In this document: piece by piece, positions 8,056 to 60,616 of the stretch | Position numbering within the stretch: position 1 is the stretch's first letter | Layout of the letters: every line of letters begins with the position of its first letter | Source of the DNA: Kordia zhangzhouensis | GTDB taxonomy: Bacteria; Bacteroidota; Bacteroidia; Flavobacteriales; Flavobacteriaceae | Direction: 5' to 3' | Assembly: GCF_001005305.1 (NCBI RefSeq) | Contig: NZ_LBMH01000006.1 | Coordinates: 1-64,000, forward strand | DNA: 64,000 nt | Notes under the pieces: generated by a model | What the model was told of the DNA's origin: nothing | Seen by the model: the letters and a program-made list of their open reading frames with translations, nothing else | Database searches by the model: none | Translations under genes and position numbers: made by a program

Positions 8056-8217
8056 ATGAAAGCTAGAAAACTTAATCGTTTATCACTACAAAAAACAGCA
8101 GTTTCAAAACTTACTTCGCATCAACTAACAGGCGGAGTTGCACCAACAACTCACAAAACCAACATTACATGTGGAGGTATTTGTGAAAACTCTGTTATTG
8201 TTTGTGACGAAAGATAA
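8056..8217 (+). CDS. GG-leader Cys-containing peptide (lanthipeptide-precursor-like)
   Basis: A 53-residue peptide. The basic leader has the pattern KLNRLSLQKTAVSKL and ends in Gly-Gly (LTGG), followed by a short Thr/Cys-containing core with three cysteines (ITCGGICE, VIVCDE). This matches the leader style of small peptides annotated in Flavobacteriia as class I lanthipeptide or natural-product precursors. No LanB/LanC-type modification enzyme or peptidase-containing exporter is in the window, so modification and activity are unknown. The gene stands alone and ends before a strong terminator. ATG 8056 is the only sensible start. Confidence 0.7.
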   Translation: MKARKLNRLSLQKTAVSKLTSHQLTGGVAPTTHKTNITCGGICENSVIVCDER

Positions 8218-47989: not shown

Positions 47990-48184
47990 AAGAATTTTAC
48001 TTACTTTTTTAGCTTAAATTATTGTTAACTAATATTTTACTTGATTTCTACCTGTGTTTCAACAGGTTTTAGCTAAAAGAAATGCGTTTCTATGTTTTCC
48101 TAGTACTTTCTTTCATGTGTTTCCGTAAGCTATTCACATATGAATCTTGTAACTTATCAACTGTTTAACCATAAAAAAATTACT

Positions 48185-48394
48185 ATGTTAAAAAGTATTT
48201 TACGTATCCAAGGGACTAAAATTTTGAGTAAAAAAGAGCAACAAAACGTAACAGGCGGAAATAGTTGTAACTCTTATAATGGTCCAAGTTGTTTTGGTCC
48301 AATGCCTGGCTGCGCAAGCTGTGCCAGATGGCAAGCCTTACCGTTAGAATATAAAAACTGTGCTTTTGTAGATGTTTCGTGTGCTGAAAATTAA
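48185..48394 (+). CDS. GG-leader Cys-rich peptide (lanthipeptide-precursor-like)
   Basis: A 69-residue peptide. The start at ATG 48185 (MLKSILRIQGTKILSKKEQQ) is preferred over 48140 because the leader then fits the family. The leader ends VTGG, followed by a core with six cysteines (SCNSYNGPSCFGPMPGCASC, NCAFVDVSC). Such double-Gly leaders are processed during export of bacteriocins and lanthipeptides. No modification enzymes or dedicated transporter nearby. A hairpin follows the stop. It is monocistronic between typA and a lipoprotein gene. Confidence 0.7.
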   Translation: MLKSILRIQGTKILSKKEQQNVTGGNSCNSYNGPSCFGPMPGCASCARWQALPLEYKNCAFVDVSCAEN

Positions 48395-53380: not shown

Positions 53381-53412
53381 AAAAAAGACCTACGATAGCA
53401 GGTCTTTTTTTC
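53381..53412. terminator. Terminator of the GG-leader peptide gene at 53430
   Basis: AAAAAAGACCT, 8-base loop, AGGTCTTTTTT (53381-53410), 11-base-pair perfect stem with A/T flanks on both strands. It lies between the DUF1801 gene and the peptide gene. Confidence 0.85.
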
Positions 53413-53429: not shown

Positions 53430-53732
53430 TTAACACCTTCTTGTTTCCAAACAATCCATCTTAGTCGGTTCGTCGCTTCCTCCACAAAAATCTGTAGCTC
53501 CATTTTGCGTATTTGTAGGTCGTGTACATACGTTTGTTTCTACAGACATACATGCGCATGTATCATACAGCGTTTCATTTAAACAATCACGAGTTCCACA
53601 AGTTAAAGGATCTGAAAGCGGAATAGTTTCACCGTTTTGAATAGCGCCACCTCTTACGCGACCCATCGCTTTAAATGATACTACAGTAGTTTTTTGGAAT
53701 TGTAATTTGGAGGTAAATTGTTTTTTCTTCAT
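53430..53732 (-). CDS. GG-leader Cys-rich peptide A (lanthipeptide-precursor-like)
   Basis: A 100-residue peptide from ATG 53732 (MKKKQFTSKLQFQKTTVVSF; an ATG two codons earlier is possible). The basic leader ends RVRGG. The core has eight cysteines (LTCGTRDCLN, DTCACMSV, NVCTRP, DFCGGS, MDCLET and a final Cys), many Thr and an acidic character. Precursor-like, but no enzyme for modification is nearby. It stands directly downstream of a TPR-AraC regulator gene and has its own full-consensus promoter. Confidence 0.7.
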   Translation of the reverse strand: MKKKQFTSKLQFQKTTVVSFKAMGRVRGGAIQNGETIPLSDPLTCGTRDCLNETLYDTCACMSVETNVCTRPTNTQNGATDFCGGSDEPTKMDCLETRRC

Positions 53733-53759
53733 AATCATTAGGTTTCATAAGTTTTCATC

Positions 53760-53791
53760 CAAATATATGTGTAGACATTCTACTTATACAA
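53760..53791 (-). promoter_or_regulatory. Promoter of GG-leader peptide A
   Basis: Minus strand: TTG (53791-53789), a 21-base spacer, TATATTTG (53767-53760). This is a full consensus promoter lying between the regulator stop and the peptide start, so the peptide can be transcribed without the regulator gene. Confidence 0.7.
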
Positions 53792-53832
53792 GAAAATATC
53801 TAGAAATTCATAAATTACGAGTGCAAAAAAAA

Positions 53833-55635
53833 TCATTCAATCCCTTTATTATCAAGGTTTTTTATATAATACGAGGGATACAATCCTGTTTTGTTTTTGA
53901 ATGCTCTAGAAAACGATTCTGAACGATTAAAACCAATTTCTTGTGCGATGGAATCGATAGTGTACGAACGAAATTTCTTATCATCTTTTAATCTTCTAAT
54001 TGCATAATTAATACGAAGATCTGTAATATATGCCGAAAAAGATTTCCCTTTGTGCGAGTTAACCAACTTCGACAAATAAGATGTATTTGTTTTTAATTTT
54101 TTAGCAACTTCATTCAAACTACAGTTACGACTTAGGTATTGCTCTTTAGTTTCAAACTTTTCTAATTTTTTTAATAAACGAACTTTGGTTTCATCAATGA
54201 TTTCAACTTCTTTGGCCTCAATCTTTTTTTCAGGAAGTTTTTCGGTTGTTTTTTCTTCTAGTTTTTCTTGAGTGACTTGGGCAATTTTTTCAACAATCTC
54301 TTCTTTTTCATCTTCTAAACTTTGAAGGATTGCCGCAAATTTCCGTTGATTTTCTTTTTCACGCTGTTTATAAAAGTAAACCAACCAGATAACTGTAATT
54401 ATGGCAAGAAAAACACTCACAAATAAAATAATCTTCGTTATATATGAGTTTTCTTCTGCCAAGCTTAATTCTTCTTTAAGCGATTGAAGATCATATTTCC
54501 GAATGATATTGATACTTATATTTTCTTGTCGTTTATCATTTTGCTTGTATATATCATTCGCTTTCTCAAAATATTTTATACTATTATTAATGTCTCCCAA
54601 TTCATTATATGACTTAGCCAGTAAAGCATAGGTTTCTTCTAACTTGATAAAATTAAGATGATTAGCATTCATCAACTTTTCAGATTTTACTAAATACTCA
54701 ACCGCTTTTTCATATTTTCCTTCATAATAGTAAACTTCTCCTTTTTCAAAATATATAAGCGGAATTTCTGGGTCGATAGATTTAATTTGATGGGCTATTT
54801 CCAGCGAAGCATCCAACAATTCGTGAGCTCTATCATAGTTTTTATTCAACCCTTCAATTGTCCCTAAAAAAGATAAAAAATAGAACTTAGATTCAGTTAA
54901 ATTGTTTTGGTTACTAAGTACTATCCCTTGTTCGCAATATTGTTTCGCTTTGGTGTAATCTTCAGTATATATATATCCTTTTATCAACGCTACGTAAACT
55001 TTAGTTTTGAAAGGCGTTAAATCACCTGCTGTTCCAGTTTCAATTGTCGCAATGATTTTTTCAAGGATTTCAATAGCTCCAGAATTATCATTCGTTTGTT
55101 GTTTAATTAATGCGATATTAAGTGATATGGCAAGTTCGCGTTTGAGATTTTTGGTTTTTCGAGCCAGTTCAAGTGCTTCTAGATTATATTCCATTGATTC
55201 TTTGTAAGAACCAAATGCATAATAAAAATTGCCTTTATTAATCAGAGCCGATAAAATCAAATCATTCTCATTCATTTTTTTGGCAATTACGTAGAGTCTA
55301 TCTACATAATTTAATGATTCTTCCAAGCGCATCTGACTGTGGTACCAGTGAGCCAATACAAAATTTCCCCAAAACTGTGTTCGGAGTTCTTTTGAGGAAA
55401 GCATGACAGATTCTGCGTAATCGACGCTAATCTTTGTTTTGATAGAATCTAACTTGTACTGTTGCGTAAATAAACGAGCAAACTCTTTAGGTTCAATATC
55501 ACTCAAGGACTTTTTGAACGCTTCTTGATCAAAAGATGCTATATGATTTTGTACAATCGTATTTGCATATAAATGTTGATTAGAGGAAATAATAAAAATG
55601 AGTAGTAAACACACTACATATTTTTGAAGGAGCAT
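53833..55635 (-). CDS. Transmembrane TPR-AraC regulator A
   Basis: A 600-residue one-component regulator. A signal peptide (to about residue 25) is followed by TPR helices up to about residue 390 (EYNLEALELARKTKNLKREL, YIYTEDYTKAKQYCEQGI). One transmembrane helix lies at about 403-423, then a Lys/Glu coiled coil, and a C-terminal AraC helix-turn-helix (about 495-600: LNEVAKKLKTNTSYLSKLVN, DSIAQEIGFNRSESFSRAFK). The TPR should be in the periplasm and the AraC domain in the cytoplasm. A close paralogue is at 56138 and a peptide gene follows each. The targets are unknown. Confidence 0.9.
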   Translation of the reverse strand: MLLQKYVVCLLLIFIISSNQHLYANTIVQNHIASFDQEAFKKSLSDIEPKEFARLFTQQYKLDSIKTKISVDYAESVMLSSKELRTQFWGNFVLAHWYHSQMRLEESLNYVDRLYVIAKKMNENDLILSALINKGNFYYAFGSYKESMEYNLEALELARKTKNLKRELAISLNIALIKQQTNDNSGAIEILEKIIATIETGTAGDLTPFKTKVYVALIKGYIYTEDYTKAKQYCEQGIVLSNQNNLTESKFYFLSFLGTIEGLNKNYDRAHELLDASLEIAHQIKSIDPEIPLIYFEKGEVYYYEGKYEKAVEYLVKSEKLMNANHLNFIKLEETYALLAKSYNELGDINNSIKYFEKANDIYKQNDKRQENISINIIRKYDLQSLKEELSLAEENSYITKIILFVSVFLAIITVIWLVYFYKQREKENQRKFAAILQSLEDEKEEIVEKIAQVTQEKLEEKTTEKLPEKKIEAKEVEIIDETKVRLLKKLEKFETKEQYLSRNCSLNEVAKKLKTNTSYLSKLVNSHKGKSFSAYITDLRINYAIRRLKDDKKFRSYTIDSIAQEIGFNRSESFSRAFKNKTGLYPSYYIKNLDNKGIE

Positions 55636-55680
55636 ATACAGTTTTTTTGATTCTATTATTTATCAAAATAGGCAGTATAT

Positions 55681-55688
55681 CAAAAATA
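55681..55688 (-). promoter_or_regulatory. -7 box of regulator A
   Basis: The minus strand reads TATTTTTG, an exact TAnnTTTG match, 45 bases before the ATG. The paralogous regulator gene has the same box. Confidence 0.4.
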
Positions 55689-55758
55689 AAGGTTTTTATA
55701 GAATTTAACACCTTCTTTTACTGTCAATTTTATGTTTCTATGAAAGAATAGCAATAAA

Positions 55759-55785
55759 AAACTCTCTAAATGGCTTAGAGAGTTT
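55759..55785 (-). terminator. Terminator of GG-leader peptide B
   Basis: AAACTCTCTAA, 5-base loop, TTAGAGAGTTT: 11-base-pair perfect stem. On the minus strand a T-run follows. Confidence 0.85.
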
Positions 55786-55808
55786 ACTATATAGGTTGGT
55801 TGAGTGTT

Positions 55809-56027
55809 TTAACATTTGTCAACAGAAGCATCTATGCAAAACTCTTCTGTATCATTTGAGAGTGTGATGCCAGTTTTACAGTCAGCTCCAAGAATAGTTA
55901 CCCTGATAGTTGTGATAATGCAAACATCATCTATAGAAGGTTGGGGATCGTTTCCTCCTACAATGTTATTTAGCCTTGACACACTCACTTTTCTGACCTC
56001 TAGCTTCAATTTTCTTCCTTTTTTCAT
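55809..56027 (-). CDS. GG-leader Cys-containing peptide B (lanthipeptide-precursor-like)
   Basis: A 72-residue peptide. The leader (KKGRKLKLEVRKVSVSRLNN) ends IVGG and is the classic Flavobacteriia form. The core has four cysteines and many Thr/Ser (DDVCIITTIRVTI, ADCKTGITLS, EFCIDASVDKC). It is between the two TPR-AraC regulator genes on the same strand, with its own -7 box and terminator. No modifying enzyme in the window. Confidence 0.72.
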   Translation of the reverse strand: MKKGRKLKLEVRKVSVSRLNNIVGGNDPQPSIDDVCIITTIRVTILGADCKTGITLSNDTEEFCIDASVDKC

Positions 56028-56058
56028 AATGATACGTTTTGTTTAATTTGTATTGTTT

Positions 56059-56066
56059 CAAATATA
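56059..56066 (-). promoter_or_regulatory. -7 box of GG-leader peptide B
   Basis: The minus strand reads TATATTTG, an exact match, 32 bases before the ATG. At -33 spacing CTG replaces TTG. Confidence 0.5.
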
Positions 56067-56137
56067 CTAGAAAATGATAGCGAGCCCAGATATAGCTAGT
56101 CGTGATTTATAAATAACGACTACACACACTTACTAAA

Positions 56138-57940
56138 TTACTGTTTTTCAAGCTCTTTTATAAAGTATGATGGATATAATCCTGTTTTTACTTTGAATGC
56201 TTTAGAGAATGATTCGGAGCGTTTAAATCCAATTTCTTGAGCAATAGCACCAATAGTAAAGGATCTAAATTTTCGATCCGTTGATAATTTTTCAATTGCA
56301 TACTCTACTCGAAGATCAGTGATATAGGAGGTAAACGATTTTTGTTTGTGTCGATTAATGACTTTAGACAGATACGTTGTATTGGTTTGTAATTTTTTAG
56401 CAACTTCTACCAAAGTACTCTCCGGACTTAAAAACATTTCCTGCGTTTCAAACGCATCTAACTTGTTTAATATTTCTAGCGTAATTTCATCAATTTCTTC
56501 AATATCTTCAGGCTCTTCCGTTTCTTTCTTTACTAATACTTCAGGTTCTTTATGAGCGTTTTTTTCATTTAGTACTACCTCTTTTCGTGCTTTTTCTTGC
56601 TGTCGTTTTTCTTCTAATTGTAGCATCAAGCTTTTAAAACGTTCTTTATTTTTTTTCTGTTGTCGTTTGTTAAAAAATAATAATCCTACTATAATCAATA
56701 CCAAGCTTACAATACCTACTGTATAGATATACTTGGTTTGTTTTGATTTTTCCTGTAAGGTGTTGATTTCTTCTTTTAGTTGTACTAAATCAAACTTTTT
56801 GACAATGTTTGCATTTAGTTCATTCATTTTTTTATCATTCTCTGTATCAATCTCAATAGCTTTTTCATGATATTTTACACCCATTTCAGCATTACCAAGT
56901 GCCGTATACGATTTGGCTATATAGTAGTACATCTCTTGAAGACTTAAGAAATCTAATTTGTGCGTTTCTTTGAGTTCTTCTATTTTTTGTAATTCTTCTA
57001 TTGCTTTTTGATATTTTTTTTCACCATAATATGTTTTCCCTCTGTAAAATTTGGCAAATAAATTCAAACTTTCATTTCCCACCATATTATCAATAAGTGT
57101 TTCGGTTTTATCTAAAAGTGTATGCGCTTTTTGATAATTGCCTTTGGCTGTTTCAATCTCTGCAAAAGCTGACAAAAAATGAGCTTCTGCTCGCTTATTA
57201 TTGATTGTTTCATTTAATTGCACGCCTTTATCACAATACAATGTAGCTAACTCATATTCTTCAATATATGTATAAGCTCCACATAAATTCACGTAGATAT
57301 TCAACTTTTGTTTGTCATTGATAATTGACGGATTATTATTGATAATTTCTAAATTTTCCAATAAAAGTGCAATAGCAGCTTTTGTGTCATTCGCTTGCAT
57401 TTTTACTAAGGCTATATTTCCTGTTACAGCAACTTTTCGTTTAAGATCATTCGCTTCTTTAGCGATTTCTAATGCATTGTAATAGGAACGTAAGGCTGGA
57501 AAATTTTTCCCCGATTTAAAATAAAAAAAACCTTTTCGAAGATGAGCTAAGTATAGTATACTATCATTTTTTATTGTACTAGCAAGATTAATTCCTTTAT
57601 CAAATAGCGCTATTGCTGCTTCTAAATTCCCTACTTTGTCTTCCCAATAAGGCAATGTAATTGCTGTAGAAGCTGCTATTTTAGGATTGGAAGCGTTGAG
57701 ATAATGTTCTTTAAGGTAAGATGCAACGAGAGCCGCTTTGAGAGAATCTTTATTTTTTTCAGCATGAAATATTCGTGTGAGCTTGTAAAAAGAATGTGAA
57801 GGCAAAGCTTCTCTAAACGCTTGTAGTGTATCATTTCGATCATGAGACAATTTCGTTTGTGCTGCCATATCACTACTTATAAAACTTACAAAAAACAAAA
57901 TTAGTAGAATATGAGAAGAACAATAAAATCGAATTGACAT
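56138..57940 (-). CDS. Transmembrane TPR-AraC regulator B
   Basis: A 600-residue paralogue of the regulator at 53833 with the same order: signal peptide (SFISSDMAAQ), TPR helices, transmembrane helix at about 403-423 (TVGIVSLVLIIVGLLFF), charged coiled coil, and AraC helix-turn-helix at about 497-600 (VEVAKKLQTNTTYLSKVINR, IAQEIGFKRSESFSKAF). The AraC and linker parts agree more closely with the paralogue than the TPR parts, which suggests different ligands and similar DNA sites. It follows the tandem histidine kinase genes with a gap of 72 bases. Confidence 0.9.
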   Translation of the reverse strand: MSIRFYCSSHILLILFFVSFISSDMAAQTKLSHDRNDTLQAFREALPSHSFYKLTRIFHAEKNKDSLKAALVASYLKEHYLNASNPKIAASTAITLPYWEDKVGNLEAAIALFDKGINLASTIKNDSILYLAHLRKGFFYFKSGKNFPALRSYYNALEIAKEANDLKRKVAVTGNIALVKMQANDTKAAIALLLENLEIINNNPSIINDKQKLNIYVNLCGAYTYIEEYELATLYCDKGVQLNETINNKRAEAHFLSAFAEIETAKGNYQKAHTLLDKTETLIDNMVGNESLNLFAKFYRGKTYYGEKKYQKAIEELQKIEELKETHKLDFLSLQEMYYYIAKSYTALGNAEMGVKYHEKAIEIDTENDKKMNELNANIVKKFDLVQLKEEINTLQEKSKQTKYIYTVGIVSLVLIIVGLLFFNKRQQKKNKERFKSLMLQLEEKRQQEKARKEVVLNEKNAHKEPEVLVKKETEEPEDIEEIDEITLEILNKLDAFETQEMFLSPESTLVEVAKKLQTNTTYLSKVINRHKQKSFTSYITDLRVEYAIEKLSTDRKFRSFTIGAIAQEIGFKRSESFSKAFKVKTGLYPSYFIKELEKQ

Positions 57941-57974
57941 AGCTAAAACGTTGAAATAGTTAACAGGGAATACT

Positions 57975-57982
57975 CAAAAATA
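57975..57982 (-). promoter_or_regulatory. -7 box of regulator B
   Basis: The minus strand reads TATTTTTG, an exact match and the same octamer as before regulator A, 34 bases before the ATG. Confidence 0.4.
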
Positions 57983-58012
57983 GAAAATTTAATTCCAAAA
58001 TAGATAATGCGA

Positions 58013-59302
58013 TTAATTTTTCATCTTTTTAGGAATTTGAAAGCTAAAAGTAGCGCCTTTACCTTCTGAGCTTTCTAGGTAAATTTCACCTTCATTACGC
58101 TCTACTATCTTTTTGACCAAAGCTAACCCAATACCAATTGCTTCTCCATCTGTATCAATTTGCAATTTCTGAAACAATTCAAACACTTTTTTATGATAAC
58201 GAGTGTGAATTCCTGGGCCATTATCTTTAATAGAGAATCGATAATCTGTTTTTGTTTCTTGATAATCAATTGTTATTTCAATAAGATCTTTGTCATTATG
58301 TTTAATCGCATTTTGAATTAAATTTTGAAATACTTGAGTAAGCTGCGATTCATTAAAAAGAATTCTAGGTAATTTTTTTTCTATCGTACAGTTGATATGA
58401 TTAGCTTCATATGTGCGTAAAATTCTCTTTACCAACGTATGTACATTCACTTCTTTTACTTCTTGTTCTGGATTTCCTTGAAGCGAATAATTTAAGATTC
58501 CTTCTACCAAAAGGTCCATTTGCGTTACTTGTTTTTTGATATGAAATAAGCTTTGATTTGCAGCATCGTTTAACTGTTTATCTTCGTCTTCTATCAACCA
58601 ATCTGTCAGTGTATAAATGTTTCGCAATGGACGTTTGAGATCGTGTGATACTACATATGCAAACTCTTCCAAATCTTTATTTTTTCGCAATAATTCTTTG
58701 GCGCGAAGCTCAGAATCTTTAGTCCGTTTTTTAATTACTTTTTCAAGATTTGTATTAATCACTTCCAATTTTTTACGATAGCGAATAAAGCCATTCGTAA
58801 TCAGAAAGGAAAGTATAAAAATAATGCTTATCGTAGCTAAAATGCTACTCTCATGTACAGGATCTAAATCAGATATATATACATAATAGGCTAAGTGAAT
58901 CGTTTCTGTAGTGCTGTATATAATTACTAATATTCGGTTACTTAACAGCAATACAGAACCAAAAATAAACACATAAGTAACCAATAGGAAGTCTAGTGAA
59001 AAATTATTTAAATAAGTTGCATACGTTAAATAGTGCTGGAATGCCATTGTAGAAAAAAAGACAAATAAACCATAGTACTGCAAAATGAATTTATTCTTCA
59101 AATTGGGTAAAATTCCAATTAGTAAAAATAAAACTGCAAACACCATATTTCCATAAAAAGGTATAATAACCTCTGGATGATAATATTTCATGATTTCCAT
59201 ATACACAAACGTACTAGGTGCACCAAGACATAACGTTATGCCACTATTGCGAATTTCAAAAGGTTCCAGCCTTCCTAAAGTTTTAAATACGTTTTTTATC
59301 AT
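58013..59302 (-). CDS. Membrane histidine kinase B
   Basis: A 429-residue sensor kinase with six hydrophobic segments in the first about 175 residues, a short coiled coil, then HisKA and HATPase domains. The H-box is FAYVVSHDLKRPLRNIYTLT, N-box NLIQNAIKH, G1 DNGPGI, F-box FELFQKL, G2 GIGLALVKKI. It is a tandem paralogue of the next gene upstream (30-base gap). No response regulator gene is nearby. The membrane part is unusual in having no clear periplasmic loop, so it may sense the membrane itself. Confidence 0.9.
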   Translation of the reverse strand: MIKNVFKTLGRLEPFEIRNSGITLCLGAPSTFVYMEIMKYYHPEVIIPFYGNMVFAVLFLLIGILPNLKNKFILQYYGLFVFFSTMAFQHYLTYATYLNNFSLDFLLVTYVFIFGSVLLLSNRILVIIYSTTETIHLAYYVYISDLDPVHESSILATISIIFILSFLITNGFIRYRKKLEVINTNLEKVIKKRTKDSELRAKELLRKNKDLEEFAYVVSHDLKRPLRNIYTLTDWLIEDEDKQLNDAANQSLFHIKKQVTQMDLLVEGILNYSLQGNPEQEVKEVNVHTLVKRILRTYEANHINCTIEKKLPRILFNESQLTQVFQNLIQNAIKHNDKDLIEITIDYQETKTDYRFSIKDNGPGIHTRYHKKVFELFQKLQIDTDGEAIGIGLALVKKIVERNEGEIYLESSEGKGATFSFQIPKKMKN

Positions 59303-59332
59303 GAAAGTTTGAGGCAGTTTATGTTTTAATTT

Positions 59333-60616
59333 TTAAGATGGTATTGTAAAAATAAATTGAGCTCCTTTGCCTAGTTCACTCTCTATGTAAATTTTTCCTC
59401 CATTCCGTTCAATGATTTTTTTCACTAAAGCCAAGCCAATTCCTATAGAATCTACTTCTTTTTTAACATCAAGCTTTTGAAAGAGTTCAAAAATCTTTTT
59501 ATGGTATTTCTCTTCAATTCCAGGACCATTATCTTTGATAGAAAATTGATGCATTCTTTCTAATTTTTGATAATCAATCGTAATATCAACATGATCTTTA
59601 TCGGTATGCTTTATAGCATTTTGAATTAAATTCTGAAAAACTTGTAGTAATTGCGACTCATTAAACATTACTTTTGGAAGTTTTTTCTTTAAATGGATAC
59701 GTACCGTTTCACTAGAATTTACTGTAATTATACGTTCTACCAACGCTTGAGAATCTACACTATTGACAGGCAACTCTTTGTCCATTTGCAAGGAATAGTT
59801 CAAAATTCCTTCTACTAATAGATCCATTTGTGTCACTTGTTCTTTAATCAATCGAAAACTTTGATTCGTTTCATCATTAAACTGATATTCATCGTCATCA
59901 GTAAGCCAATCAGTAAGTGTATAAATATTTCGTAGTGGGCGTTTAAGATCGTGAGATACTACATAAGCAAACTCTTCCAAATCTTTATTTTTTCGCAATA
60001 ATTCTTTTGCTCTATTCTCTAAATCGTTTGTGCGTTGTTTTATTCGTTCTTCCAGTTCAACATTTACCGCTTCTAACTTTTTTCGATAACGAATCAACCC
60101 ATTCATAACTAAAAAAGAAAAGATAAAAATAGTGCTCATGGATACCATAATTGCACTTTCTGACATACGATCTAATGTAGAATAATATACCCTATATGCA
60201 AGGTGTAATAACTGCGAAGCACTAAAAATAATAACTAATAATCGATTGCTTAAAAGTAATACAGAACCAAAAATAAAGACATACGTTACCAATAAATAAT
60301 CTAATGAAAAATCATTCAATGCCGTTGCATAAGTTAGATAGTATTGAAAGGTCATTAGTGTGGCAAAAGAAATCCAACCATACATTTCGTTGAGACGTTT
60401 ATGCTTAAAATAAGGAATAGCTCCTACTAGCACAAAAAGCAACGAAAATACTATTTCACCGTAAAAAGGAATGTTGAGATCAGGGTTGTAATGTAGCATG
60501 AATATCACATAGATATACGTGCTTGGTCCTGCAAGCAAAAAAGTGATACTACTGTTCTTTATTTCAAAAGGTTCTAATCGTCCAACATCTTTAAGATATT
60601 TTACAATTTTATCCAA
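59333..60616 (-). CDS. Membrane histidine kinase A
   Basis: A 427-residue paralogue of the kinase at 58013, first gene of the pair. It begins with the shared GRLEPFEI motif, then six hydrophobic segments and the cytoplasmic YRKKLEAVN linker. The H-box VVSHDLKRPLRN, N-box NLIQNAIKH, G1 DNGPGIEEK and G2 GIGLALVKKI are complete, so both copies look active. The kinase core is nearly the same in both; the membrane parts are also close. No partner regulator gene is adjacent. Confidence 0.9.
   Translation of the reverse strand: MDKIVKYLKDVGRLEPFEIKNSSITFLLAGPSTYIYVIFMLHYNPDLNIPFYGEIVFSLLFVLVGAIPYFKHKRLNEMYGWISFATLMTFQYYLTYATALNDFSLDYLLVTYVFIFGSVLLLSNRLLVIIFSASQLLHLAYRVYYSTLDRMSESAIMVSMSTIFIFSFLVMNGLIRYRKKLEAVNVELEERIKQRTNDLENRAKELLRKNKDLEEFAYVVSHDLKRPLRNIYTLTDWLTDDDEYQFNDETNQSFRLIKEQVTQMDLLVEGILNYSLQMDKELPVNSVDSQALVERIITVNSSETVRIHLKKKLPKVMFNESQLLQVFQNLIQNAIKHTDKDHVDITIDYQKLERMHQFSIKDNGPGIEEKYHKKIFELFQKLDVKKEVDSIGIGLALVKKIIERNGGKIYIESELGKGAQFIFTIPS

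What the first reader, a model, noticed from the sequence alone, without database searches (positions are those of the whole stretch)
53430..60616. Duplicated block of sensor kinases, transmembrane TPR-AraC regulators and GG-leader peptides
On one strand, two paralogous six-helix histidine kinases (30-base gap) are followed by two paralogous regulators of the same 600-residue architecture (signal peptide, TPR, one TM helix, coiled coil, AraC). Each regulator gene is followed by a small Cys-bearing GG-leader peptide gene with its own promoter box and terminator. Seen: order, duplication, architecture. Known: TPR domains bind peptides in the RRNPP regulators, and AraC proteins activate transcription. 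Inferred: the exported peptides, or products made from them, are ligands for the periplasmic TPR domains, so the block would be two related peptide-sensing circuits. I know of no described system of this exact form.
Basis: partly seen in the sequence, partly recalled or inferred. Interest (0 to 1): 0.78.

Follow-up and report, generated by a model that had tools for sequence, protein, structure and literature searches.

The report
Regulator-peptide gene pairs in Kordia
Marine Kordia bacteria carry many copies of a small gene cassette, a membrane-spanning regulator next to its own exported-peptide gene, and these may be parallel peptide-signalling or peptide-weapon circuits that share one processing line.

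Summary
The window lies in a Kordia genome (Flavobacteriaceae). Regulators W1 and W2 belong to a TPR-TM-AraC family with 15-49 matches in each of 11 Kordia genomes. In three genomes 46 of 49 full-length members are followed on the same strand by a leader peptide gene (loose-rule control 10 of 147 genes); in 80 further Kordia loci 71 by rule, 74 with three added by eye; outside Kordia 18 of 60. The peptides resemble Bacteroidetes class I lanthipeptide precursors (LxLxKx5L-like leader, GG). Each Kordia genome has one LanB gene, beside one TPR-AraC gene, so most cassettes look like satellites of one maturation locus. About half the cassettes have a TTTATAAA-centred palindrome about 78 nt before the peptide start; its arms vary with the AraC domain, not the TPR domain, so I read it as the regulator's operator. 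The kinase pair is a conserved neighbour here, but is absent from 11 other loci of this genome with 4 kb upstream. That the adjacent peptide is the TPR ligand is untested; a coevolution test gave no support. Best reading: each regulator switches on its own adjacent peptide gene; peptide sensing is plausible but inferred.

The parts
59333..60616 (-). HK2, membrane histidine kinase (HisKA + HATPase_c), TTG start; conserved neighbour, probably not part of the cassette family
58013..59302 (-). HK1, paralogue of HK2 (63% identical), 30-base gap
56138..57940 (-). W2: TPR-TM-AraC regulator, 600 aa
56097..56122 (.). Proposed operator of W2: palindrome TAGTCGTgATTTATAAATaACGACTA, centre 43 nt upstream of the -7 box and 82 nt before the peptide start; only copy in the window at up to 3 mismatches
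56059..56066 (-). -7 type promoter box TATATTTG of peptide 2
55809..56027 (-). Peptide 2: 72-aa GG-leader, lanthipeptide-like precursor (leader ends LEVRKVSVSRLNNIVGG); not hit by NF038153
55759..55785 (-). Terminator hairpin after peptide 2
53833..55635 (-). W1: TPR-TM-AraC regulator, 600 aa
53800..53821 (-). Proposed operator of W1: CTCGTAATTTATGAATTTCTAG (imperfect palindrome), centre 78 nt before the peptide start; only copy in the window at up to 3 mismatches
53760..53767 (-). -7 type promoter box TATATTTG of peptide 1
53430..53738 (-). Peptide 1: about 100-aa GG-leader, lanthipeptide-like precursor (NF038153 at 20.6 bits, cut-off 22; 22.8 with frame neighbours); likely start at 53732
53384..53407 (-). 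Terminator-like hairpin AAAGACCT...AGGTCTTT plus T run after peptide 1
   Evidence: read by eye from the sequence printed; not listed by the scan

Best explanation
Each regulator-peptide pair is a self-contained cassette. The TPR-TM-AraC protein is a membrane one-component regulator: TPR sensor in the periplasm, one membrane helix, AraC domain in the cytoplasm (predicted). The AraC domain binds a palindromic operator with centre TTTATAAA about 78 nt upstream of the next gene and activates that gene's promoter. The gene encodes a GG-leader RiPP precursor of the Bacteroidetes class I lanthipeptide type, dehydrated by LanB (with LanC where present), then cut and exported by the C39 peptidase transporter; in Kordia these enzymes come from one hub locus elsewhere in the genome. 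My commitment for the input step is that the exported product, or one like it, is bound by the TPR domain and closes a positive feedback loop. Shown by computation: linkage, leader type, hub, position of the palindrome, covariation of its arms with the AraC domain. Inferred: binding, activation, processing in trans and above all the peptide as ligand (about 0.4 taken alone).
For: Linkage 46 of 49 in three Kordia genomes, 71 of 80 by rule in further Kordia loci plus three variant leaders, 18 of 60 in other genera of the family. Relaxed LxLxKx5L leader in 145 of 156 proximal peptides, strict in 40; that motif with GG and C39 is described in PMC7268733 (passages). One LanB match in each of 11 Kordia genomes, 1.2-1.7 kb upstream of a TPR-AraC gene on the same strand (coordinates); own hub LanC, LanB N-part, LanB C-part, TPR-AraC, two peptides, HlyD, C39 transporter. 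Outside Kordia, 13 genomes with a rule-linked pair have C39 in 13 and LanB in 12; 23 others 7 and 4 (Fisher). Palindrome centre in 76 of 156 cassettes (shuffles 7.8); centre-to-start quartiles 77-80 nt, stop-to-centre quartiles 11-30; at 74-84 nt in 66 of 156 cassettes against 6 of 176 other genes. Arms follow AraC given TPR (partial 0.43, 0.35, 0.27; 0 of 1000 permutations as high), but TPR given AraC only 0.07, -0.03, -0.12 (57, 701 and 990 of 1000; 35 cassettes). Same site 82-83 nt before a MatE gene in 3 of 3 orthologous loci and before second peptides in 2 loci. Centres 21-22 bp apart upstream of 10 of 134 regulator genes, about 0.5 in shuffles.
Against: No sign that TPR and peptide core diverge together once AraC is held fixed (partial 0.01, 419 of 1000 permutations as high). 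TPR divergence at fixed AraC identity is as strong in unlinked members. Regulator arrays without any peptide exist (L121, L123). About half of the cassettes have no recognisable centre, and only 21 of 87 have an exact TANNTTTG box (shuffles 4.6). In the further set only 7 of 15 palindrome-to-box distances fell in the windows set beforehand (shuffled 0.42), and that set includes orthologues of the first. The 21-22 bp pairing was suggested by four of the ten loci that show it. 10 of 152 scored cores have no Cys, so cannot form lanthionine rings. LanC is missing in 8 of 13 linked non-Kordia genomes, and LanC-like proteins outside the hub, some in frames of 974-982 aa, mean that LanB may not be the only lanthipeptide enzyme in Kordia. 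Nothing is shown experimentally.
Confidence: 0.6

Rival explanations
1. The regulator controls its peptide gene, but the TPR domain senses something else: a foreign peptide, a competitor product, an envelope state or a nutrient. The peptide is an effector such as a bacteriocin, and each cassette is a private alarm-and-weapon pair.
For: The palindrome evidence concerns the output only. TPR and peptide core do not covary. TPR domains are hypervariable also where no peptide is linked and occur in peptide-free arrays. One palindrome also fronts a MatE efflux gene, and in L079 and L091 a larger gene stands where the peptide would be, 83 and 77 nt after a TTTATAAA centre.
Against: Why each peptide should need a private sensor is less obvious than under private ligands; some cores have no Cys and look little like a ringed weapon.
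Confidence: 0.35
2. Negative feedback or immunity: the exported peptide is sensed by the TPR domain to shut down or tune its own gene.
For: Paired centres upstream of some regulator genes point to autoregulation of unknown sign.
Against: The palindrome lies well upstream of the -7 box (about 43 nt where both are found), a place usual for activators (recalled), not over the promoter.
Confidence: 0.1
3. The palindrome is only the regulator's transcription terminator, and peptide genes sit downstream by ancestral linkage without being controlled.
For: It lies after the regulator stop codon, and complementary arms of varied sequence also suit an RNA hairpin.
Against: Its distance is steadier to the next start codon than to the stop (in L010 172 nt from the stop but 81 nt from the start). 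The same sequence recurs before a MatE gene and before second peptides, and similar centres lie upstream of some regulator genes.
Confidence: 0.06
4. The two kinases and two regulators form one four-gene phosphorelay that controls the peptides.
For: Same strand and order; at least one of the kinases lies beside the block in each of 7 other Kordia genomes compared, both in 5 of them.
Against: No receiver domain among the Pfam hits shown for W1 and W2. In L053, L266 and L267 a gene on the opposite strand separates kinases from regulators. No homologue of these kinases in the other family loci held, 11 of them with 4 kb or more upstream.
Confidence: 0.05

Closest known systems
Bacteroidetes class I lanthipeptide clusters (LxLxKx5L leader, GG, C39, split LanB as in pinensin), as described in PMC7268733 (passages read)
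   Same: Leader motif, GG end, LanB split into N and C parts on separate genes, LanC and C39 transporter in the own hub.
   Different: Most precursors here lie far from the enzymes, and many have their own TPR-TM-AraC regulator; the main text of that paper has no occurrence of AraC or tetratricopeptide.
RRNPP peptide receptors (Rap, NprR, PlcR, Rgg)
   Same: TPR superhelix sensor (structural matches to NprR and Rap; sequence profile matches) next to a small peptide gene.
   Different: Membrane-spanning, sensor predicted outside the cytoplasm, AraC instead of the N-terminal HTH of RRNPP regulators (recalled), peptide with a GG leader rather than a short Sec-exported propeptide (recalled).
Pneumococcal rtg locus: Rgg-type regulator, C39 transporter and several GG peptides (PMC7018657, abstract and section list seen)
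   Same: A TPR-type regulator (Rgg fold, recalled), one C39 transporter and a coregulated set of GG peptides.
   Different: Cytoplasmic regulator with a separate small pheromone (RtgR/RtgS); one locus, not many cassettes; I recall no LanB there.
Prochlorosins (one LanM, many precursors; recalled)
   Same: One modifying enzyme serving many dispersed precursors.
   Different: Class II enzyme; I recall no dedicated regulator beside each precursor.
TPR-like genes near RiPP clusters of Bacteroidales (PMC10352776, passages read)
   Same: The authors note TPR-like genes in two clusters with GG precursors and mention pheromone binding of such domains.
   Different: No fused TM-AraC protein, no one-to-one pairing and no operator in the passages read.

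Membership tests
Class I lanthipeptide precursor (Bacteroidetes type) | Leader with LxLxKx5L-like motif ending in GG | tested here: met
   145 of 156 proximal peptides relaxed, 40 of 156 strict; leader split at GG in 130 of 156. W1 and W2 peptides fit the relaxed form only (read from sequence)
Class I lanthipeptide precursor (Bacteroidetes type) | LanB and LanC encoded in the genome | tested here: met
   Own genome and the 10 other Kordia genomes
Class I lanthipeptide precursor (Bacteroidetes type) | Precursor gene clustered with LanB/LanC | tested here: not met
   Met for the hub on contig C12 only; the W1/W2 peptides lie on contig C40, the one LanB on C12. I therefore call them lanthipeptide-like
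Class I lanthipeptide precursor (Bacteroidetes type) | Cys with Ser/Thr in the core | tested here: inconclusive
   Met for W1 and W2; 10 of 152 scored cores have no Cys (an eleventh zero is a mis-split leader), 25 have one
Class I lanthipeptide precursor (Bacteroidetes type) | Lanthionine rings in the product | not testable with these tools
   needs mass spectrometry
RRNPP receptor | TPR superhelix similar to Rap/NprR | tested here: met
   Foldseek NprR rank 29, Rap rank 31 and on; the TPR domain of LGN and designed TPRs rank higher
RRNPP receptor | Cytoplasmic protein with imported peptide | tested here: not met
   N-terminal hydrophobic stretch plus internal TM helix in W1 and W2, both over a strict hydropathy threshold in 32 of 49 members, the rest weak at the N-terminus only; by prediction only
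RRNPP receptor | Cognate peptide binds the TPR domain | not testable with these tools
   no complex prediction available here
AraC/XylS regulator | HTH_18 domain over curated cut-off | tested here: met
   58.6 and 48.4 bits, cut-off 33.6
AraC/XylS regulator | Binding sites repeated about two helical turns apart (recalled for AraC) | tested here: inconclusive
   Centres 21-22 bp apart upstream of 10 of 134 regulator genes; the peptide-side site is a single palindrome
GG-pheromone with histidine-kinase receptor (ComCDE type) | Kinase receptor linked to the peptide gene | tested here: not met
   Homologues of this kinase pair were found only at this locus and its orthologues among the loci held; a different LytTR/His_kinase pair lies upstream of L008's regulator

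The most novel reading that the evidence does not exclude
Every peptide-linked TPR-TM-AraC protein is a private receptor for the matured product of the peptide gene beside it. A Kordia cell would then run many parallel, mutually distinct peptide channels (15 of 15 and 19 of 21 full-length regulators are peptide-linked in the two single-contig genomes examined; up to 49 family matches in another), all matured and exported by one shared LanB/LanC/C39 line: a membrane-spanning counterpart of the Gram-positive RRNPP systems in a phylum for which I recall no characterised peptide pheromone receptor.
Probability: 0.33. Interest if true: 0.92.

Novelty: new variant of a known kind. Interest (0 to 1): 0.75.

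Why it matters
It gives a large, testable family of regulator-site-peptide cassettes in marine Bacteroidota, with predicted binding sites for 76 of 156 and natural controls (peptide-free members, cassettes whose palindrome fronts another gene). If the peptides are the ligands it would be a new route for peptide signalling across a Gram-negative envelope. If they are effectors, it explains how a genome can hold dozens of lanthipeptide-like precursors under separate control with few enzymes.

Tried and rejected
Mirror-tree test of TPR against peptide core: negative. The contrast of fast TPR against slow AraC looked like a receptor-ligand signature, but unlinked members show it too, so I dropped it as evidence. 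Kinases as part of the system: rejected for the family at large, with the limit that loci of G002 and G003 had only about 0.5-0.7 kb upstream. Palindrome as terminator: judged unlikely from its steadier distance to the next gene. Helical phasing of palindrome and -7 box: distances cluster at 42-44 with a few at 52-54.5 and, before the MatE genes, 55-56 by my count on the sequences; counts are small (8 of 11; 7 of 15) and some scored palindromes are clearly spurious, so I claim only a preferred spacing. Two literature searches with kinase and pinensin terms listed nothing on point by title and abstract.

Dropped rows: the three-genome count uses full-length members only: own genome 13 of 15 matches at E 1e-30 (the other two were not listed and not examined), G002 15 of 18, G003 21 of 25. 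Left out in G002 and G003 were short or broken frames and one full-length, weaker member of G002 (703715-705412, fetched as L072, not scored). The 80 further Kordia regions come from the visible part's list; 13 more listed there were not fetched (12 of G001, one of G008), and unlisted ones not at all. Three of the 80 overlap L053 and were left out of the operator tests. Family and class searches scored only 6 and 3 candidates per genome, so absences there are not firm. Of 16 loci read from the class search, 2 (L170, L178) have a leader peptide next; they are not in the 18 of 60. The 60 were the best matches plus chosen arrays, not a random sample. Four members counted as unlinked in the tree or (L025, L219, L221, L251) have variant leaders. 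G204's second regulator has five peptides starting about 470 nt away and counts as unlinked by the 320-nt rule.
Full report
The finding was checked first as stated. The two kinases, two regulators and two small peptide genes are at the given coordinates and strand. The kinases are 63% identical with a 30-base gap. The regulators are both 600 aa, 37% identical, and carry TPR and AraC (HTH_18) domains with a hydrophobic N-terminus and one internal membrane stretch. AlphaFold2 of W1 gives a TPR superhelix, a long helix through the membrane stretch and an AraC domain. The peptides have GG leaders and hold Cys; each is preceded by a TATATTTG box. A terminator hairpin follows peptide 2; one after peptide 1 is read by eye from the sequence.

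The window lies on contig C40 of a 4.03 Mb genome. The three named hits to W1 are all Kordia, and all 11 genomes of the genus that were searched hold many members of the family, 15 to 49 matches each at E 1e-30. In the own genome 12 of 13 full-length members have a leader peptide next on the same strand, in G002 15 of 15 and in G003 19 of 21, together 46 of 49 (earlier passes missed variants ending GRG or GKG). Among 147 other genes over 200 aa in the same loci and window, 10 met the same loose rule, four or five of them convincing by eye, one of these itself a shorter AraC gene. In 80 further Kordia loci 71 met the rule and three more have leaders ending in GK. Other Kordia loci bring the tree set to 69 of 77 by rule; outside the genus 18 of 60 meet it, and 2 of 16 loci from the wider class search do. 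On a tree of 137 members the linkage changes 14 times against 40.7 for shuffled labels (near-copies add to this), so it is an old trait of some clades, lost or replaced in others.

What the peptides are: 145 of 156 proximal peptides match a relaxed form of the LxLxKx5L leader and 40 the strict form. That motif, with GG and a C39 protease, is reported for class I lanthipeptide precursors of Bacteroidetes in PMC7268733 (passages read). The own genome has 84 hits at E up to 10 to the lanthipeptide leader model NF038153, 12 over its cut-off, one clear C39 transporter with a weaker second hit, and one LanB. The hub on C12 holds LanC, LanB N-part, LanB C-part, a TPR-AraC gene, two peptides, HlyD and the C39 transporter. 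Each of 11 Kordia genomes has one LanB match, 1.2-1.7 kb upstream of a TPR-AraC gene (coordinates). LanC-like proteins also occur elsewhere in these genomes, three of them in frames of 974-982 aa, so other lanthipeptide enzymes are possible. In other genera, 13 genomes with a rule-linked pair have C39 in 13 and LanB in 12; 23 others have them in 7 and 4 (Fisher p 5e-5 and 2e-5). LanC is present in 5 of those 13, and 10 of 152 scored cores have no Cys, so not all products can be ringed lanthipeptides.

How the cassette works: between regulator stop and peptide start there is often a palindrome with centre TTTATAAA and variable arms. A TTTATAAA-like centre is found in 76 of 156 cassettes against 7.8 expected in shuffles. 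Its distance to the peptide start is nearly constant (quartiles 77-80 nt, sd 13) while its distance from the regulator stop varies more (quartiles 11-30, sd 21, extremes 4 and 172). At 74-84 nt it occurs in 66 of 156 cassettes and before 6 of 176 other genes. An exact TANNTTTG box stands 10-75 nt before the peptide in 21 of 87 cassettes (shuffles 4.6); where box and a good palindrome are both present the centre lies mostly 42-44 nt upstream of the box (8 of 11; in the further set 7 of 15 distances in the windows noted beforehand, shuffled mean 0.42). The arms vary with the AraC domain and not clearly with the TPR domain (35 cassettes). In one orthologous group the same sequence stands a second time 82-83 nt before a MatE efflux gene in 3 of 3 genomes, and in two loci before the second peptide. 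In L079 and L091, which lack a peptide, a TTTATAAA centre stands 83 and 77 nt before another gene. Centres 21-22 bp apart are found upstream of 10 of 134 regulator genes against about 0.5 expected; four of the ten had suggested the test. I read this as the regulator's own binding site, controlling the next gene and in some cassettes the regulator itself.

The input is open. The TPR model matches the TPR domain of LGN best and the pheromone receptors NprR and Rap well, which shows a peptide-binding type of fold and no more. TPR and peptide-core divergence do not track each other once AraC is held constant. In peptide-linked and unlinked members alike the TPR domain diverges far faster than the AraC domain, in the extreme 27% against 93% identity (L117 and L119). 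Two genomes of other genera carry arrays of regulators with no peptide between them. I therefore give the adjacent peptide as ligand about 0.4 and an unrelated cue about 0.35.

The kinase pair stays beside this block in the other Kordia loci compared: both genes in G002, G004, G005, G006 and G010, one in G003, and one seen at the edge of L053. Another gene separates kinases from regulators in L053, L266 and L267. No homologue of the pair (over 32% identity, 150 aa) lies in the other family loci held, of which 11 in this genome have 4.0-6.9 kb upstream and many others much less. I treat it as a neighbour.

Literature: in the listings of searches I saw no paper on a TPR-TM-AraC regulator paired with peptide genes. 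The nearest are PMC10352776, which notes TPR-like genes in Bacteroidales RiPP clusters (passages), and PMC7018657 (abstract and section list). Two papers on Kordia or Flavobacteriaceae gene clusters mention lanthipeptides in the passages seen and hold no AraC term in their main text (PMC7477175; PMC10734526). The Kordia algicida transcriptome paper PMC10565126 holds none of AraC, lanthipeptide or tetratricopeptide in its main text. Subscription papers are mostly not in the library.

Noticed in passing
window 48140-48394 +: Another small peptide gene with a different GG leader (ILSKKEQQNVTGG) and a Cys-rich core, no TPR-AraC beside it; the same leader type occurs in L002 (6718-6933) and L004 (3606-4194).
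   Followed up: partly
window 8056-8217 +: Orphan lanthipeptide-leader peptide (NF038153, 23 bits) between a DUF192 gene and a secDF gene, without a regulator beside it.
   Followed up: partly
L017:4855-7000: A 370-aa AraC gene without TPR is followed by four lanthipeptide-leader peptides: a second regulator type paired with the same precursors.
   Followed up: no
L121, L123: Tandem arrays of seven and five TPR-AraC genes with no peptide genes between them; array members up to 99% alike in AraC but far less in TPR.
   Followed up: partly
L117 and L119: Regulators of two genera, 93% identical in the AraC domain but 27% in the TPR domain, as if the sensor domain had been exchanged.
   Followed up: no
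L004, L063, L086: The palindrome of the C41-type cassette recurs 82-83 nt before a GTG-started MatE efflux gene, a possible immunity or export partner.
   Followed up: yes
L125:6039-6916: Five GG-leader peptides in a row, the first about 470 nt after a TPR-AraC gene: a peptide array outside Kordia.
   Followed up: no
whole genome G000: 84 hits to the lanthipeptide leader model (E up to 10) for a single LanB; by position most are not beside one of the 13 TPR-AraC genes.
   Followed up: partly
L008:1079-2868 -: A LytTR response regulator and His_kinase pair lies about 1.2 kb upstream of the C22b regulator, the only other two-component genes I checked near a cassette.
   Followed up: partly
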